The position numbers and the translations under genes were made by a program. DNA of 11,604 bases from Nitrospira sp. (GTDB lineage Bacteria > Nitrospirota > Nitrospiria > Nitrospirales > Nitrospiraceae). Under the pieces are notes generated by a model. It did not search any database, was not told the DNA's origin, and worked only from the letters and a program-made list of their open reading frames with translations. Shown here piece by piece: positions 3,449 to 10,226 of the stretch (positions are counted from its first letter, which is position 1; every line of letters begins with the position of its first letter). Where the stretch lies: assembly GCA_012032965.1 (NCBI GenBank), contig JAAUPT010000019.1, positions 1-11,604 of the forward strand. Reading direction: 5' to 3'.

Positions 3449-5427
3449 GTGTCTAACCTCACTGATCTGCTGATTAAGCTGATTCCCATTTTCCCGTTGA
3501 TGGCGGTCATCGTAAACGGCCTTCTGGGGAGTCGCTATTCCCGAGATATGGCTCATCGACTCGCCTGGGGATCAGTGGGCCTTTCGTTCCTCTGCACAGT
3601 CGCCGTATTTACGGATGTCATGCGGACTGGGACTACCCATGAAGTTATCGCGTACCAATGGATTTTTGGAGGAGATCTGACGATCAATCTTGCGTACCTC
3701 GTGGATCCTCTCACCTGTGCGTGGTTGCTGGTCGTCACCGGTGTGGGCTTTCTGATCCACGTATATTCCGTGGGCTATATGCATGGGGAAACTGGGTTTA
3801 CGCGATTCTTTACGTATATGAATTTGTTTATGGTCTCCATGCTGCTGCTTGTCATGGGGAACAACTATCTGGTGCTCTTCATTGGTTGGGAAGGGGTGGG
3901 ACTCTGTTCCTATCTACTTATCGGCTATTACTATGACAAAGTGTCCGCTGCAAAAGCGGCGACGAAGGCATTCGTCGTCAATCGGATCGGCGATGCCGGC
4001 TTTCTGGTCGCCATCTTTCTCATCTTCGTCAACTTTAGGACTCTCGACTATACCAAGGTCTTTGCGCAGGCTGGTCAACTGTCTCCAGAGATGGCCACAG
4101 CGATAGCTCTGTGCCTGCTTGTGGGCGCTGTGGGAAAGTCCGCGCAATTGCCTCTGCACACATGGTTGCCTGATGCGATGGAAGGTCCAACACCGGTCAG
4201 CGCCCTCATCCACGCAGCGACGATGGTGACGGCAGGCGTCTACATGATCGTGCGCAATCATGCGATTTTTGATCTTTCGCCTTTTGCCATGTCGACGGTG
4301 GCAGTCGTCGGTGGTGGCACCGCATTGTTTGCCGCGACCATCGGGCTCGTTCAAACCGACATTAAGCGCGTGTTGGCCTATTCGACCGTGAGCCAACTTG
4401 GATACATGTTCCTGGGTTGTGGGGTTGGTGCCTACACAGCTGCTGTGTTTCATGTCATGACGCATGCATTTTTCAAAGCCTTGTTATTTTTGGCGGCCGG
4501 GTCGGTCATTCATGCGCTATCCGGTGAGCAGGACATCCGAAAGATGGGTGGACTGAGCAAACGCATCCCATGGACCCATCGTCTGTTTCTGATTGGTACG
4601 GTTGCGATCGCTGGGTTGCCTCCTCTCGCCGGATTCTGGAGTAAGGATGAAATCATGGCTCACGCATTTATGAATCATCACTACCTCCTATACAGCATGG
4701 CTGCGGTTGGGGCACTGATGACTTCGTTTTATATGTTTCGGCTGACGTATCTCACGTTCTATGGCCCTTCAAGGATGGATCATCATACGGAGGAGCATGT
4801 GCACGAATCTCCTATGGTCATGGTCGCACCTCTGATGGTTTTAGCCTTCCTCTCTGGTGTGGGCGGATTAATCCTTGGGTTCCCCCCAGAGCATGGGTGG
4901 CTGCATGGCTTTTTGGCTCCGGTCGTTGGAGCTGCAGGTGCACATGAGGCCAATACGGGGATGGTGTTTCTGTTGATGGGTGTGGCCGTCGCGATTGCCG
5001 TGATCGGATGGGGACTCGCACATTTTCTGTATGGCGTGAGTTCGGCCACGGCTGATGGGTGGGCGGAGAAGTTTTCTGGGACATATCGAACACTCTATAA
5101 CAAATATTATATCGATGAATTGTACGACCGACTATTTGTGGAATCAGTGAAACGCCTTGGAATGTTACTAGACTGGTTTGATCGCACCGTCATCGACGGT
5201 GTGGTGCGCAGTGTGGGGCGGCTCGCCGACTGGGGGGCCTTTTGGGTTCGACATGGATTGAGAAATACGTCGTCTATGCCGGCTTGAATGTGATCGGATA
5301 CGGCAACCATCTGGCAGCTCGTGAAGGACGAAAAATGCAGAGCGGAATGGTCCACCACTATGCCGCCATCATTGTTGCGGGGCTTTTTCTTCTGGCGGTC
5401 GTGGTTCAACTTGTAGTTCAGATGTAG
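3449..5427 (+). CDS. nuoL: NADH-quinone oxidoreductase subunit L, with extended lateral helix and one frameshift
   Basis: NuoL is the distal antiporter-like proton-pumping subunit, and its C-terminal amphipathic helix HL runs along the membrane arm. Key residues are visible: Glu148 (TM5, FIGWEGVG), Lys230 (TM7, GAVGKSAQLPLHTWLPDAMEG), His255, and Lys399-Asp400 (GFWSKDEI, TM12). The start is GTG 3449, with AGGA 4 nt before it and an in-frame stop just upstream at 3440. In the raw frame it ends at 5287, but the conserved tail (EKYVVYAG..., then RKMQSGMVHHYAAI and the last TM helix) continues in frame 1 to TAG 5425-5427. A base is missing between about 5231 and 5247, most simply a G in GGG 5244-5246. 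Corrected length is about 659 residues against ~610-650 in ordinary NuoL. From IDG (5192) to QSG (5346) there are 52 residues, about 26 more than in typical homologues recalled from memory, which lengthens HL as expected for a complex with an additional NuoM. Confidence 0.93.
5231..5247 (+). other. Frame break in nuoL (missing base)
   Basis: The stretch has a run of six G (5232-5237), four T and three G. Adding one G at 5244-5246 turns the frame into D-W-G-A-F-W-G-S-T-W-I-E-K-Y and joins the main NuoL frame to its conserved C-terminal helix; a missing G in the six-G run would also work. It lies inside the unusual HL extension. Confidence 0.75.
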
Positions 5428-5452: not shown

Positions 5453-7015
5453 ATGCTCGAAGAACTCACGGCTGGGTTTCCAATTCTGTCCTGTATTCTC
5501 TTTTTCCCTGTGGTTGGAGCAGCTGTCCTGTGGGTGATCGATGACGAGGATACGGTCAGGAGTGCTGCCCTCACCATCGCACTGGTTGAGCTTGCGCTCT
5601 GTGTATTTGTCTTGCTTCGCTTCGTGCCAGAGTCGGCCGCCATGCAGTTCACAGAACGTGTGCCGTGGATTCCGGCTCTAGGGATCAGCTACCACTTGGC
5701 GGTCGATGGAATCAGCGTCCTGTTCGTGGGTCTCACGGCGTTTCTGACCGTTCTGGTTGTGGTCTACTCGTGGGATACGATTCGCCATCAGGTCAAATTG
5801 TACATGATGTGCCTGTTAGCCCTTGAAACGACGACGATGGGCGTGTTCGTCTCGTTGGACTTGATCTTATTCTTCGTGTTCTGGGAGCTGATGCTGATTC
5901 CGAGCTACTTCTTGATCAAACTGTGGGGAGGCGGAGCCGAACGTCACTACGCGGCGTTGAAGTTCGTCCTCTATACGCTTTTGGGCAGTGTCTTCATGCT
6001 GGTTGGAATTGCATTACTGAATATCAATTTCCATGAGTGGGCCTCGTTGCATCATGCCGATCAGGCGTACTCGTTTGATTTCCTCGACCTTCTGAGCGTG
6101 CCAATTCCAGTCAGTCAGCAGATGGTGATCTTTTGGCTGATGTTTTTGGGATTTGCATTTAAGGCACCGGTGTTCCCATTCCATACCTGGTTGCCTGATG
6201 CCCTCTTAGAGGGACCGATTGGAATGGCTGTCGTATTAGCCGGTCTCAAACTAGGCACCTTTGGCTTTATGCGCTTTAGTATCCCACTGCTCCCAGACGC
6301 ATCGAAAAGTGAGACGGTTGTCACTGTCCTCGTGGTCCTCGGTCTCTGCGCAATTCTTTATGGGGCCTGGATGGCGTTGGTGCAGGCTGATTTGAGACGG
6401 TTGCTCGCTTACAGCAGCGTGAGTCACTTGGGCTTTGTGGTGGTGGGGTTGTTTGCGTTGAATTACCAAAGTCTGCAAGGCAGTTTGCTGACCATGATCA
6501 ATTTGGGGTTCAGCACAGCTGGATTATTTTTTATCGCGGGGTTTTTGTACTCCCGCCAGCAGACGACTCAATTATCCGCCTTCGGTGGAATGGCCAAACA
6601 AGTGCCGCTGCTCGCCACGTTCTTTCTTATTATCGGACTGGCGTCCATTGGGCTTCCCGGTACAAATGGCTTTGTCGGTGAGTTTCTTATTCTGCTTGGG
6701 GCTTTTGAGGCCAGATGGTGGTTTGGAGCCGTTGCCGTTTTGGGGGTGATCTTCGGTGCCGCCTATTTCCTCTGGTATTACGAGCGATCCATGCTTGGAC
6801 CGGTGGGGACAGCGGTGAGAGCCACCATGAGTGATCTGCAGCTTCGTGAGATGATTATTGTCGTCTCCTTGTCGGTCATGATTCTTTGGATCGGGCTCTA
6901 TCCATCCCCGTTTCTACGAATTATGAATGGATCGGTTCAAGCGCTCGTTGACCGGATCCACCACGATCAGGCAGCAGCGGTTGTGAGTCCGCAAATCCAA
7001 TTGGGGAAGAAGTAG
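5453..7015 (+). CDS. nuoM: NADH-quinone oxidoreductase subunit M, first copy (M1)
   Basis: This is an antiporter-like proton-pumping membrane subunit of complex I. It has 520 residues, normal for NuoM (~500-510), with ~14 helices. Hallmarks: Glu145 in TM5 (FWELMLIPSYFLIKLWGG), Lys237 in TM7 (GFAFKAPVFPFHTWLPDA), Lys266 in TM8 (LAGLKLGTFGFMRF), His325 (YSSVSHLGF) and Glu410 in TM12 (LPGTNGFVGEFLIL). The His found after the TM10 motif in E. coli NuoM (H348, MIAHGLS) is Leu351 here (MINLGFSTAGLF), and the neighbouring HTR is QTT. The sequence after HTWLPDA is also atypical (LLEGPIGMAV). ATG 5453 follows the corrected nuoL stop by 25 nt, with a weak GAGAGA 8 nt upstream. It is followed 9 nt later by a second, divergent nuoM. 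Of the two copies this one is closer to canonical NuoM in its pumping residues. Confidence 0.94.
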   Translation: MLEELTAGFPILSCILFFPVVGAAVLWVIDDEDTVRSAALTIALVELALCVFVLLRFVPESAAMQFTERVPWIPALGISYHLAVDGISVLFVGLTAFLTVLVVVYSWDTIRHQVKLYMMCLLALETTTMGVFVSLDLILFFVFWELMLIPSYFLIKLWGGGAERHYAALKFVLYTLLGSVFMLVGIALLNINFHEWASLHHADQAYSFDFLDLLSVPIPVSQQMVIFWLMFLGFAFKAPVFPFHTWLPDALLEGPIGMAVVLAGLKLGTFGFMRFSIPLLPDASKSETVVTVLVVLGLCAILYGAWMALVQADLRRLLAYSSVSHLGFVVVGLFALNYQSLQGSLLTMINLGFSTAGLFFIAGFLYSRQQTTQLSAFGGMAKQVPLLATFFLIIGLASIGLPGTNGFVGEFLILLGAFEARWWFGAVAVLGVIFGAAYFLWYYERSMLGPVGTAVRATMSDLQLREMIIVVSLSVMILWIGLYPSPFLRIMNGSVQALVDRIHHDQAAAVVSPQIQLGKK

Positions 7016-7024
7016 GGTCTGGTC

Positions 7025-8733
7025 ATGGGAGAGCACGCACTGCTGTATATCCTCTTCGCTCCGTTTCTTGGAGCGTTAGGGCTGATTTTTGTTTCCAATC
7101 GTCAACCTCTGCTTGTCCGTGGCATTGCCGCGAGCTCTGCCTTCGTGTCGTTAATTAGTTCAATCTACCTCTTCTATGCCTATGATCCTGTGAAGGGGGG
7201 ATTTCAGTTTGTCGAAAAAATTGAATGGTCTCGCCAGCTTGGCATTTCCTTGCATCTGGGTGTCGACGGTATTGGAACTCCTCTCGTACTGGCCTCAACG
7301 ATTCTCTTATTCGCTGGGATCTTCGTGTCCTGGCATATCACGGACCGGACGAAAGAGTTCTACATCTGGTTGCTGATCCTGGCGGCTGCCACGATCGGCG
7401 TCTTCATGTCCCTTGATCTGTTTTTCCTCTACTTCTTCTACGAAATGTCCGTGATCCCGATGTACTTACTGCTGGGCATGTGGGGAAGTCACACCAAGAA
7501 GTATCTGGAAATGAGTGATCCTGAAGGGGTGAAACTGAGGGATTCCGTCGGCTTCATTCTAAATTTCGGCTCCAATAGCAAAGAATATGCGGCCATGAAA
7601 CTGGTGCTCTTTCTCTCTGCGTTCGCGGTCGTGGCCTTAATGGGTATTCTGCTGATCTATAAATATTCGGGGCTTAACACCTTTGACATCTTGGTCCTTC
7701 GTGAGCAAGCCAACCTCATGAATATCCCGGTCCTGGGTACGACGCTGGACAAGATTATATGGGTTTTAGTTTTCTTCGGATTTGCATCGATCGCCCCGCT
7801 TTGGCCGATGCACTCATGGTCTCCCGTTGGCCATGCGGCGGCGCCGGCTGCGACGAGCATGCTTCATGCCGGTGTCCTCATGAAGCTGGGGCATTTTTCC
7901 ATCATCAGAGTTGCCTTCGAAATTCTTCCGGAAACGACCAGAGAAATGATGCCGATTGCTGCCGTTCTTTGCATGTTCAGCATCATCTACGGAGGTTTTG
8001 TCGCTTTTTATGCCAAGGACACGAAGTATGTCATCGGCTATTCAAGCTCCAGTCACATGGGCTATGTGTTTCTCGGCATGGCCGCCCTCAGCTACATCAG
8101 CTTGAGCGGTGCCGTCATCTATATGTTCGCCCACGCGATGGCCACGGGCATGCTGTTCGCGATGGCGGGATGGGTCTACGATCAAACCCATACACGCGAC
8201 ATTCCTTCGCTGGGTGGACTTTCCAACAAGATGCCTTTTATTTCTGCCTGTTTTATGGTGGCGTGTATGGCCTCGATTGGGATGCCGGGCACGGTGAATT
8301 TTATTGCGGAGATCATGATTGTCGTCGGCAGTTGGAATAAGTACCCATTGCAAGTGATCGTAGCGATGTTGGGCATTGTACTGACGCTGGCCTACCTATT
8401 TAAGATGATGAGGGGCCTGTTCTATGGTCCGATGAATCAGAAGTACGGCCACGCCCATGATGCGATTTCTACGGTTGATCGCCTGCCGTTGTTGATCATG
8501 ATCTCAGTCAGCATCGGGTTCGGTATTTTCCGATGCATCTGTATGATGTTGTTCGCTCTGGCGTGGATCCATTGATCGTGAAGATCACCGAAGTCGTTCC
8601 TGTTGCGCAATCTGGGGACGGCGCACGCCCTCAGAACGTAGGACGTCTCTCTGAGACCATGACGACGACGCCGGTGGTTGCCAACAAGGTTCTGCCGACT
8701 CCTGTGCAGACGTCACCAGGAGGGAGCGAATGA
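7025..8733 (+). CDS. nuoM: NADH-quinone oxidoreductase subunit M, second divergent copy (M2), one frameshift
   Basis: This second NuoM-like antiporter subunit would add a fourth pumping module to the membrane arm. Recognisable parts: Glu140 in TM5 (YFFYEMSVIPMYLLLGMWG), Lys287 in TM8 (LHAGVLMKLGHF), His344 (SSSHMGYVFLG), His370 (MFAHAMATG), THTRDIPSLGGLSNKMP and Glu429 (MPGTVNFIAEIM). Differences: the TM7 motif FAxK-x-P is FASIAP, so the channel lysine is Ile256 (codon 7790-7792), and WLPDAH is WSPVGH; an insertion of ~27 residues follows TM5 (156-186, HTKKYLEMSD...). The raw frame ends at 8575 in a non-homologous tail. Adding a C to CC 8530-8531 gives GIFPMHLYDVVRSGVDPLIV and a stop at 8731-8733, for about 569 residues with a ~50-residue hydrophilic tail. 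That corrected stop overlaps nuoN by ATGA, which supports the correction. ATG 7025 has AGGG 7 nt before it. Confidence 0.92.
8526..8532 (+). other. Frame break in nuoM2 (missing base)
   Basis: TTTTCCG lacks one C. With TTC CCG ATG CAT the protein reads G-I-F-P-M-H-L-Y-D, matching the usual NuoM end (G-x-Y/F-P-x-x-x-x-D). The open frame then runs to the TGA that overlaps the nuoN start. Confidence 0.75.
8718..8723 (+). promoter_or_regulatory. Shine-Dalgarno site of nuoN inside the end of nuoM2
   Basis: AGGAGG (continuing as GAG) lies 6 nt upstream of ATG 8730. It is the strongest ribosome site in the window and sits inside the corrected 3' end of nuoM2, fitting coupled translation through the ATGA overlap. 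Confidence 0.75.
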
Positions 8734-10226
8734 TCTTTTCGCTGAATCTCTCCTTTTCAGATCTGCTTCTTCTCTTGCCCGAAATCTTCCTCACGTGTTG
8801 GCTTTGTGTTGTCCTCATCGTCGATTTCGTCTCTCCACGCCTGCCTAAAGAACAGTTGGCGTATCTCAGTGTGGCAGGCCTCGTCATCACACTAGGATGT
8901 TTGGCGTGGTTTGACGTCAATCATATATCCGGGGCGCTGTTTGGCAACATGTTTGTACTGGATCGCATGGCGATCTTTTTCAAGGTGTTTATTTTGGGAG
9001 CCACCATACTCGTGATTCTGTCGTCAGTCGAGTATGTCAATCGGTTCACGTTATTCCGGGGAGAATATTATGTTCTCGTGGTGATGTCGGCGCTTGGCAT
9101 GATGTTCATGGCGTCGGCCAATGATCTCCTTTCTGTCTTTGTCAGCTTGGAGTTCTCCACACTTGGGTTTTATGTACTCGTGTCGTATTTACGCGATGAC
9201 TTGGCCTCAAACGAGGCAGGATTGAAATTTTTTATCCTTGGCGTTTTTGCTGCTGGCCTGTTCGCGTACGGCATCAGCCTCGTCTACGGTGAAACGGGTC
9301 AGTTAGTGTTCTCAGAAATGTCGTCCGCACAAGCAACCCCCGGCTTGATCATTGGATTTCTGCTGATCTTTGCCGCCTTAGGATTTAAGATCGGGGCTGT
9401 TCCTTTCCATTCGTGGATACCCGATACCTATCACGGCGCCCCAACCCCCGTTACGGCCTTTTTGTCGATTGCCCCCAAAGGCGCTGCTTTGGTGATCCTA
9501 CTCAGGATTTTTCTCGTTGCATTGGCGTCGTTTAAACCGGTTTGGGTGTACTTGTTAGTTGCGGTCTCGATCGTGTCGATGACCTATGGAAACATCGTGG
9601 CCATCGCTCAGCGAAACATCAAGCGACTGCTTGCTTACTCTGGGATCGCCCAAATAGGAAACGTGTTGATAGGATTGGCAGCGGGAACCAAGATGGGAAG
9701 TGATGCCATTCTATTTTATCTCCTGGCCTATCTCTTTGCGAATCTCGGAGCTTTTGCCGTTGTCATTGCAGTCAGCCAGGCGATCGGGAAGGACGAGATC
9801 GAGGATTATCGTGGCCTAAACAGACGCTCTCCGTTTTTGGCATTTGCCATGTTGCTGTTCCTCTTGTCATTGGCCGGGGTCCCGCCGCTAGCTGGGTTCA
9901 TTGGAAAACTCTACATCTTTGTCGCTGCGATCCAGGAAGGGCTCTATACCTTAATCACGGTCGGCCTGATCAATATCGTCATATCGATGTACTATTACTT
10001 AATTGTCGTGAAGCAAATGTACATCAATGAACCGATTGATCCGTCTCCAATTAGGATTTCCTCTCCGATGAAAACCGTCATCTATGTCAGCTTAGCGGGG
10101 ACTTTGGTGATCGGAATTTACCCCCAACCGTTTACCGACTGGGTGGTGGAAGCTACGCTGATGTTTTCCAACTTTGTGACTCCTTCCGCAACGGCCCTTC
10201 CCTCAACGATACATGTTGGTGGCTAG
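8730..10226 (+). CDS. nuoN: NADH-quinone oxidoreductase subunit N
   Basis: NuoN is the antiporter-like proton-pumping subunit closest to NuoK in the membrane arm. The 498 residues match the family's ~480-500. Key sites are present: Glu141 in TM5 (FVSLEFSTLGFYVL), Lys220 in TM7 (AALGFKIGAVPFHSWIPDTY), Lys250 in TM8 (TPVTAFLSIAPKGAA) and Lys393 in TM12 (GVPPLAGFIGKLYIF). The segments NIKRLLAYSGIAQIG and YYYLIVVKQMYI are typical of the family. It is the last gene of the nuo cluster here: ATG 8730 overlaps the corrected nuoM2 stop, and after TAG at 10226 there is a 112-bp spacer before a gene of a different kind. No clear rho-independent terminator follows. Confidence 0.96.
   Translation: MIFSLNLSFSDLLLLLPEIFLTCWLCVVLIVDFVSPRLPKEQLAYLSVAGLVITLGCLAWFDVNHISGALFGNMFVLDRMAIFFKVFILGATILVILSSVEYVNRFTLFRGEYYVLVVMSALGMMFMASANDLLSVFVSLEFSTLGFYVLVSYLRDDLASNEAGLKFFILGVFAAGLFAYGISLVYGETGQLVFSEMSSAQATPGLIIGFLLIFAALGFKIGAVPFHSWIPDTYHGAPTPVTAFLSIAPKGAALVILLRIFLVALASFKPVWVYLLVAVSIVSMTYGNIVAIAQRNIKRLLAYSGIAQIGNVLIGLAAGTKMGSDAILFYLLAYLFANLGAFAVVIAVSQAIGKDEIEDYRGLNRRSPFLAFAMLLFLLSLAGVPPLAGFIGKLYIFVAAIQEGLYTLITVGLINIVISMYYYLIVVKQMYINEPIDPSPIRISSPMKTVIYVSLAGTLVIGIYPQPFTDWVVEATLMFSNFVTPSATALPSTIHVGG

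What the first reader, a model, noticed from the sequence alone, without database searches (positions are those of the whole stretch)
7775..7830. M2 lacks the TM7 channel lysine
Where NuoM has FAxK-x-P-x-x-P-x-H-x-W-L-P-D-A-H, M2 reads FASIAPLWPMHSWSPVGH: the essential Lys (E. coli K234) is Ile256, and the D of LPDAH is lost. TM5 Glu140, TM8 Lys287 and TM12 Glu429 remain. The Glu-Lys pair is considered central to proton pumping in all antiporter-like subunits, so M2 may use another residue, pump differently, or act as a spacer or coupling element. That would weaken the assumption that 2M means one extra proton.
Basis: partly seen in the sequence, partly recalled or inferred. Interest (0 to 1): 0.72.

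Follow-up and report, generated by a model that had tools for sequence, protein, structure and literature searches.

The report
Proton-pump subunit missing its key lysine
In nitrite-oxidising Nitrospira and their kin, the extra pump-like subunit of an enlarged respiratory complex I lacks the lysine thought indispensable for moving protons and carries a histidine nearby instead, so the common assumption that this subunit simply adds one more pumped proton needs a direct test.

Summary
M2 (7025-8575) is the second NuoM of a Nitrospira 2M-type complex I. At the column of E. coli NuoM Lys234 (TM7) it has Ile256, as do 313 of 313 distinct M2 sequences examined, down to 56% identity. No other Lys replaces it inside TM7. 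M1, canonical NuoM and NuoN rows all keep Lys. The Asp of LPD and the gate Leu are lost too, while TM5 Glu140, TM8 Lys287, His344 and TM12 Glu429 stay.

New here: all 313 also have His281 on TM8, where canonical NuoM has Leu. That is the place of the NuoL/MrpA 'histidine switch', with the MrpA-type H-x5-K spacing. M2 is the most conserved of the four antiporter-like subunits in 75 of 81 loci, so it is no decaying spacer.

Best reading: a remodelled, working module next to NuoN whose Glu-Lys gate is replaced by a histidine relay. Whether it pumps its own proton is untested. A second Lys-less family, the terminal MrpD-like subunit, has Asn there (120 of 120 listed hits). No structure could be modelled, other 2M lineages could not be reached, and the founding 2M paper could not be read.

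The parts
7025..8575 (+). nuoM2 (M2), second NuoM of the 2M complex I; reading frame differs from relatives after residue 502 (relatives are mostly about 530-570 aa)
   Evidence: (TIGR01972, 400 bits, cut-off 263.8)
7781..7834 (+). TM7 signature FASIAPLWPMHSWSPVGH (residues 253-270)
7790..7792 (+). Ile256 codon (ATC) at the place of the TM7 lysine
7820..7822 (+). Ser266, in place of the channel-gate Leu (P. denitrificans ND4 L242); 313 of 313 Ser
   Evidence: PMC9802314 passages
7826..7828 (+). Val268, in place of the Asp of LPD (Val 309, Ile 4 of 313)
7865..7867 (+). His281 on TM8, at the NuoL His254 / MrpA His248 place; 313 of 313
7883..7885 (+). Lys287, TM8 lysine kept (E. coli K265); 313 of 313
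7892..7894 (+). His290 on TM8, M2-specific (His 311, Gln 2 of 313; canonical Ala/Thr/Gly)
7442..7444 (+). Glu140, TM5 glutamate kept (E. coli E144)
8309..8311 (+). Glu429, TM12 glutamate kept (E. coli E407)
7502..7579 (+). M2-specific insert between TM5 and TM6 (about residues 160-185), well conserved
5453..7015 (+). nuoM1; keeps the TM7 lysine (K237)
8730..10226 (+). nuoN; neighbour of M2 in gene order; keeps TM7 and TM12 lysines
3449..5287 (+). nuoL; in relatives its lateral helix has a 26-residue insert; in the window the frame breaks near 5239-5247 and the rest is read in ORF 5242-5427

Best explanation
M2 is a working, deeply divergent NuoM-type module of the Nitrospiria 2M complex I in which the TM7 Lys half of the Glu-Lys gate has been given up and a TM8 histidine relay (His281 with Lys287, MrpA-like H-x5-K) put in its place. 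Shown here: the Lys is gone, the His is gained, both without exception in the sample; the other axis residues are kept; M2 lies next to NuoN in gene order and NuoL has a lateral helix longer by 26 residues, as needed to span a fourth module. Inferred: M2 sits physically between NuoN and M1; its Glu140 is paired with the TM12 Lys of NuoN and/or protonated His281 rather than an internal Lys; the charge wave from NuoN reaches Lys287 and Glu429 through His281, which switches as His254 is proposed to do in NuoL. On this reading M2 still transmits the signal and probably moves a proton, but with another gate, so a fifth proton is possible yet not given by the presence of M2 alone.
For: Ile256, His281 and Lys287 each 313 of 313; Glu140 312 and Glu429 311, the rest being gaps in cut-off sequences. 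His281 falls on NuoL His254 in the M2-NuoL profile alignment, and in the NuoL-NuoM one through E. coli L259. The MrpA-like subunits of 7 of 7 related two-MrpD-type loci that hold one show H-x5-K on TM8 with a TM7 Lys, the same spacing as H281-x5-K287; a published MrpA H248A primer read gives the same spacing. In MrpA H248A abolishes salt-tolerant growth (PMC9568556, passages); a switch linking the Lys-Glu pair to other lysines is proposed for NuoL (PMC13358369, abstract, introduction and discussion). M2 is the most conserved of L, M1, M2, N in 75 of 81 loci, with dN/dS 0.019-0.05 in the 11 of 12 pairs where it is finite (dS is large in most, so rough). Gene order puts M2 next to N wherever N is present. 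The NuoL insert is in 5 of 5 2M NuoLs and 0 of 4 others. The N. moscoviensis 2M cluster is expressed above median (PMC6606698, passages).
Against: In the MAFFT superalignment His281 is one column off NuoL His254. The Ser (NuoL S150) that holds the switch in one position is Met146 in M2, as in canonical NuoM. Three further losses on the uptake side (gate Leu, Asp, Glu to Ser, Val, Ala) could mean that the N-side channel is changed or shut. P. denitrificans K232Q and L242A in ND4 severely cut activity (PMC9802314, passages), which argues against easy replacement. In B. subtilis complementation NuoL H254A and K229A had little effect (PMC4938563, passages), so neither residue's role is settled.
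Confidence: 0.42

Rival explanations
1. M2 is a coupling relay without its own pumped proton. Lacking the Glu-Lys gate and the usual N-side gate Leu, it only carries the electrostatic signal between NuoN and M1, so a 2M complex would pump four protons with a longer lever, or gain something other than stoichiometry.
For: Loss of TM7 Lys, gate Leu, LPD Asp and the following Glu together; in P. denitrificans ND4 the Lys and the Leu are both needed for activity (PMC9802314, passages); TM8 Lys and TM12 Glu, which carry the signal onward, are kept.
Against: Gain and strict keeping of two TM8 histidines (His281 313/313, His290 311/313) is more than a relay needs. TM8 Lys287, the residue thought to take protons up from the N side, and H270/Y270 of that channel are kept. 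In the work seen, single mutations slowed the whole enzyme and did not yield lower stoichiometry (PMC9802314).
Confidence: 0.33
2. The missing Lys is supplied in trans: the TM12 Lys of NuoN, which faces the TM5 Glu of the next module, pairs with Glu140 of M2, so the ion pair now crosses the subunit border and no histidine role is needed.
For: Gene order L-M1-M2-N with M2 beside N; NuoN keeps TM12 Lys in 127 of 127 2M rows; M1 has TM12 Glu, so N-M2-M1-L is the order that avoids an unpaired Glu-Glu contact (inference).
Against: Canonical NuoN has the same TM12 Lys beside a NuoM that still keeps its own Lys, so this alone explains neither the loss nor the gained His. Physical order is inferred from gene order only.
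Confidence: 0.17
3. Sequence error, pseudogene or local decay.
For: The window carries several small frame-breaking indels and the assembly is fragmentary (67.84% complete, 440 contigs).
Against: 313 of 313 sequences agree at 256, with silent codon change and low dN/dS; M2 is intact to full length in relatives.
Confidence: 0.01

Closest known systems
Second NuoM of 2M complex I, clade 3 (Nitrospira; named in PMC6606698 after Chadwick et al. 2018)
   Same: Gene order L-M1-M2-N, lengthened NuoL, no nuoH beside the other genes; this is that subunit.
   Different: The papers seen describe it as an added pump; none of the passages seen mentions the missing TM7 Lys or the TM8 His. Chadwick et al. 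2018 itself was not held.
Canonical NuoM / ND4 / Nqo13
   Same: Family (TIGR01972), TM5 Glu, TM8 Lys, axis His344, TM12 Glu, lateral-helix anchor His263.
   Different: Lacks TM7 Lys, gate Leu and LPD Asp; has TM8 His281 and His290 and an insert between TM5 and TM6.
MrpA and NuoL (histidine-switch subunits)
   Same: TM8 His; with Lys287 the MrpA-like H-x5-K spacing.
   Different: MrpA and NuoL keep TM7 Lys and have TM12 Lys; M2 has neither, and by sequence M2 scores as NuoM.
Terminal MrpD-like subunit of 'green' complex I and of the Manganitrophaceae five-module complex
   Same: Also lacks the TM7 Lys.
   Different: Has Asn, not Ile (120 of 120 listed hits, 8 of 8 loci); keeps LPD or L[TA]D and lacks the TM8 His; not closely related to M2.

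Membership tests
NuoM (NADH-quinone oxidoreductase subunit M, TIGR01972) | Profile score above the curated cut-off | tested here: met
   400 bits against 263.8
NuoM (NADH-quinone oxidoreductase subunit M, TIGR01972) | TM5 Glu, TM8 Lys, TM12 Glu | tested here: met
   Glu140 312/313, Lys287 313/313, Glu429 311/313; the others are gaps
NuoM (NADH-quinone oxidoreductase subunit M, TIGR01972) | TM7 Lys of the Glu-Lys pair, called 'absolutely conserved' in PMC7419157 (passages) | tested here: not met
   Ile in 313/313
Second NuoM of 2M complex I | Two adjacent nuoM genes between nuoL and nuoN | tested here: met
   L-M1-M2-N in 82 loci; the other loci are cut at an end, lack one recognised ORF or carry two L-type genes
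Second NuoM of 2M complex I | NuoL lateral helix lengthened | tested here: met
   26-residue insert in 5 of 5 relatives' NuoLs, 0 of 4 others; in the window it is read in a second frame
Second NuoM of 2M complex I | Pumps an additional proton | not testable with these tools
   Hypothesis in the papers seen; no measurement seen
NuoL / MrpA histidine-switch subunit | TM8 His at the NuoL His254 place | tested here: met
   Profile alignments and H-x5-K spacing; one column off in the MAFFT superalignment
NuoL / MrpA histidine-switch subunit | TM7 Lys and TM12 Lys | tested here: not met
   Ile256 and Glu429
NuoL / MrpA histidine-switch subunit | Histidine switches between two positions in the structure | not testable with these tools
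   Structure prediction switched off

The most novel reading that the evidence does not exclude
The M2 clade is a naturally evolved antiporter-like module that works without the TM7 lysine by using an MrpA-like TM8 histidine-lysine relay, with the neighbouring NuoN lysine completing the ion pair. The Glu-Lys gate would then be one of several ways to gate a complex I module, and pumped protons could not be counted from the number of modules. The independent Asn-type terminal MrpD-like subunit would be a second natural case.
Probability: 0.38. Interest if true: 0.8.

Novelty: new variant of a known kind. Interest (0 to 1): 0.62.

Why it matters
Models of complex I (Glu-Lys ion-pair opening, one proton per antiporter-like subunit, or exit through NuoL only) rest on the TM7 Lys being universal and essential. 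A clade that kept every other axis residue but fixed Ile there, and gained a NuoL/MrpA-type His, is a natural mutant series under strong selection. Energy budgets for Nitrospira (nitrite oxidation, comammox, reverse electron transport to ferredoxin) assume a fifth proton from M2; that number is now open. If M2 pumps, the Lys is dispensable and the His relay is sufficient; if it does not, 2M needs another reason to exist.

Tried and rejected
Rejected: sequencing error (313 of 313 agree); another Lys in TM7 (none); M2 as a recent copy of M1 (in the quick tree M2 is one clade on a branch of 1.12 outside M1 plus canonical NuoM, support 91; the program warned that long branches meet, so the exact rooting is unsure); passive spacer (conservation).

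Led nowhere: M2 of other 2M lineages (Chloroflexi, Acidobacteria, archaeal clade 2) could not be reached. The protein searches list only the best 120 and were filled by Nitrospirota, the plasmid collection holds only matches under 60% identity, best about 37% (their TM7 was not examined except for S. meliloti pSymA), and genome searches centre only on Nitrospirota handles. In the 245 Nitrospirota genomes, M2 at 57% identity or more was found in 86, all of the window's class (8 families); 2 same-class genomes had no match, and the next best were 38%. So conservation across independently arisen 2M complexes is not tested.

Papers: nine searches showed no title or passage reporting the missing Lys. 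The founding paper (Chadwick et al. 2018) and its supplement were not held, and no supplements could be read, so priority is unchecked.

Counting notes: searches (131 rows; 113 M2 rows) include copies of the window from overlapping loci; one search replaces them for M2. One search dropped matches under 250 residues; in it NuoL-like rows have Lys 130 and Asn 6 of 136 in one group, 6 of 6 and 9 of 10 (one gap) in the others. It listed 6 Asn rows, while the recount found the Asn in 8 of 8 two-MrpD-type loci.

Full report
What is there. The window carries the 3' part of nuoG, nuoI, J, K, L, M1, M2 and N of a complex I operon, then a sensor kinase-like ORF (names beyond L, M1, M2 and N are recalled from sequence look and gene order). 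L, M1, M2 and N score as NuoL, NuoM, NuoM and NuoN. It lies in a Nitrospira-like genome that also holds a canonical complex I with its own NuoM on contig C340. The two adjacent nuoM genes make it a 2M complex I. For N. moscoviensis PMC6606698 (passages) files this complex in clade 3 of 2M, lacking nuoE, nuoF and nuoH, and reports expression above median. In keeping with that, three nearly complete genomes of the genus (G102, G110, G117) have a single NuoH, beside the canonical NuoM and away from M2.

The observation. Residue 256 of M2 is Ile where NuoM has the TM7 Lys. Over 313 distinct M2 cores (240 database proteins, 129 locus ORFs, the window) it is Ile every time. Sequences reach down to 56% identity, and the loci span eight families of one class, including the Manganitrophaceae-like five-module complexes. 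Lys is present at this column in the M1, canonical NuoM and NuoN rows (130/130; 45/45 and 11/11; 127/127, 37/37 and 10/10). Most papers seen treat this Lys as universal: PMC7419157 calls TM7 and TM12 lysines 'absolutely conserved' and essential (passages), and in P. denitrificans ND4 K232Q severely cuts activity (PMC9802314, passages). One study against: NuoL K229A had no visible effect in a B. subtilis complementation test (PMC4938563, passages).

What else changed. Against canonical NuoM, M2 has lost in the same segment the gate Leu (Ser266), the Asp of LPD (Val268, rarely Ile) and the following Glu (Ala272, Ser in 16), and has gained His281 and His290 on TM8. It kept Glu140, Lys192, His263 (the lateral-helix anchor), Lys287, Lys334, His344 (one Gln) and Glu429. 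A branch of M2 in the Manganitrophaceae-like complexes has, always together, Tyr270, Lys286 and Asp370 in place of His, Met and His (44 of 371 rows, window copies included; 40 of 313 distinct cores for 270 and 370).

His281. In the direct profile alignment of M2 with NuoL it falls on His254. In the NuoL-NuoM alignment His254 falls on E. coli L259, which is the M2 His281 column. The MAFFT superalignment is one column off. The spacing settles the register best: MrpA-like subunits read H-x5-K with the TM8 Lys, as seen in 7 of 7 loci that hold one and in a published MrpA primer. M2 reads H281-x5-K287, canonical NuoM L-x5-K. [quoted passage not shown] This His is proposed as a switch joining the Glu-Lys pair with uptake and release routes (PMC13358369 abstract, introduction and discussion; PMC9568556 passages). 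M2 thus carries a mark of MrpA/NuoL in a NuoM body, in a module that has lost the Lys partner.

Is M2 working? It is the most conserved of L, M1, M2 and N against the window in 75 of 81 loci that have all four, dN/dS is low (rough), and the Ile codon changes silently. NuoL of the 2M loci has a 26-residue insert in its lateral helix in 5 of 5, not in 4 others, as PMC9040806 also reports (passages). So M2 most likely sits in the complex. Gene order has M2 next to N wherever N is on the locus. If physical order follows gene order, NuoN TM12 Lys (127 of 127) faces M2 Glu140. This is inference.

Mechanism. Most likely, M2 is a working module with a histidine-based gate: Glu140 paired with NuoN Lys and/or His281, signal and proton passing His281 to Lys287, then to Glu429 and on to M1. 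Shown: residues, conservation, register by sequence. Inferred: contacts, switching, pumping. The main rival is a relay that passes the signal but pumps nothing. Sequence alone cannot part the two.

A second case. In the complexes with two MrpD-type subunits in place of NuoL, the second and terminal one has Asn at the TM7 Lys: 8 of 8 loci, S. meliloti pSymA among them, and 120 of the 120 best database hits, a capped list. Two different families have therefore given up this Lys.

Limits. No structure. Other 2M lineages not reached. Chadwick et al. 2018 not held, so it may already mention the loss. The tree is a quick one with long branches.

Noticed in passing
L123-L127, L189, L192, L200; P0241-P0360: The terminal MrpD-like subunit of two-MrpD-type ('green' and Manganitrophaceae-like) complex I has Asn at the TM7 Lys in 8 of 8 loci and 120 of 120 best database hits: a second natural loss of the 'universal' Lys.
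   Followed up: partly
M1, window 5453-7015, around 6161-6260: M1 is also odd: TM8 is two residues shorter before its Lys (AGLKLG against AGVLLKLG) and the E. coli H348 place is Leu in 123 of 130 rows, His in 5 and a gap in 2.
   Followed up: partly
window about 1946-2056 (nuoI), 5239-5247 (nuoL end), 8530 (M2 end): Small indels against two relatives break three reading frames in 11.6 kb, which looks like assembly or read errors.
   Followed up: partly
M2 of L123-L127 and relatives, residues 270, 286, 370: Three changes that always go together (His/Met/His to Tyr/Lys/Asp; 44 of 371 rows), a possible re-tuning of the axis in five-module complexes.
   Followed up: partly
M2 residues about 160-185 (window 7502-7579): An insert of about 25 residues between TM5 and TM6, strongly conserved in M2 and absent from canonical NuoM and M1; function unknown, perhaps a contact to a neighbour.
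   Followed up: no
2M operon, window between nuoG and nuoI (about 1850-1930): No nuoH between nuoG and nuoI; some genomes hold a single NuoH, beside the canonical complex, so the 2M complex may share it or do without.
   Followed up: partly
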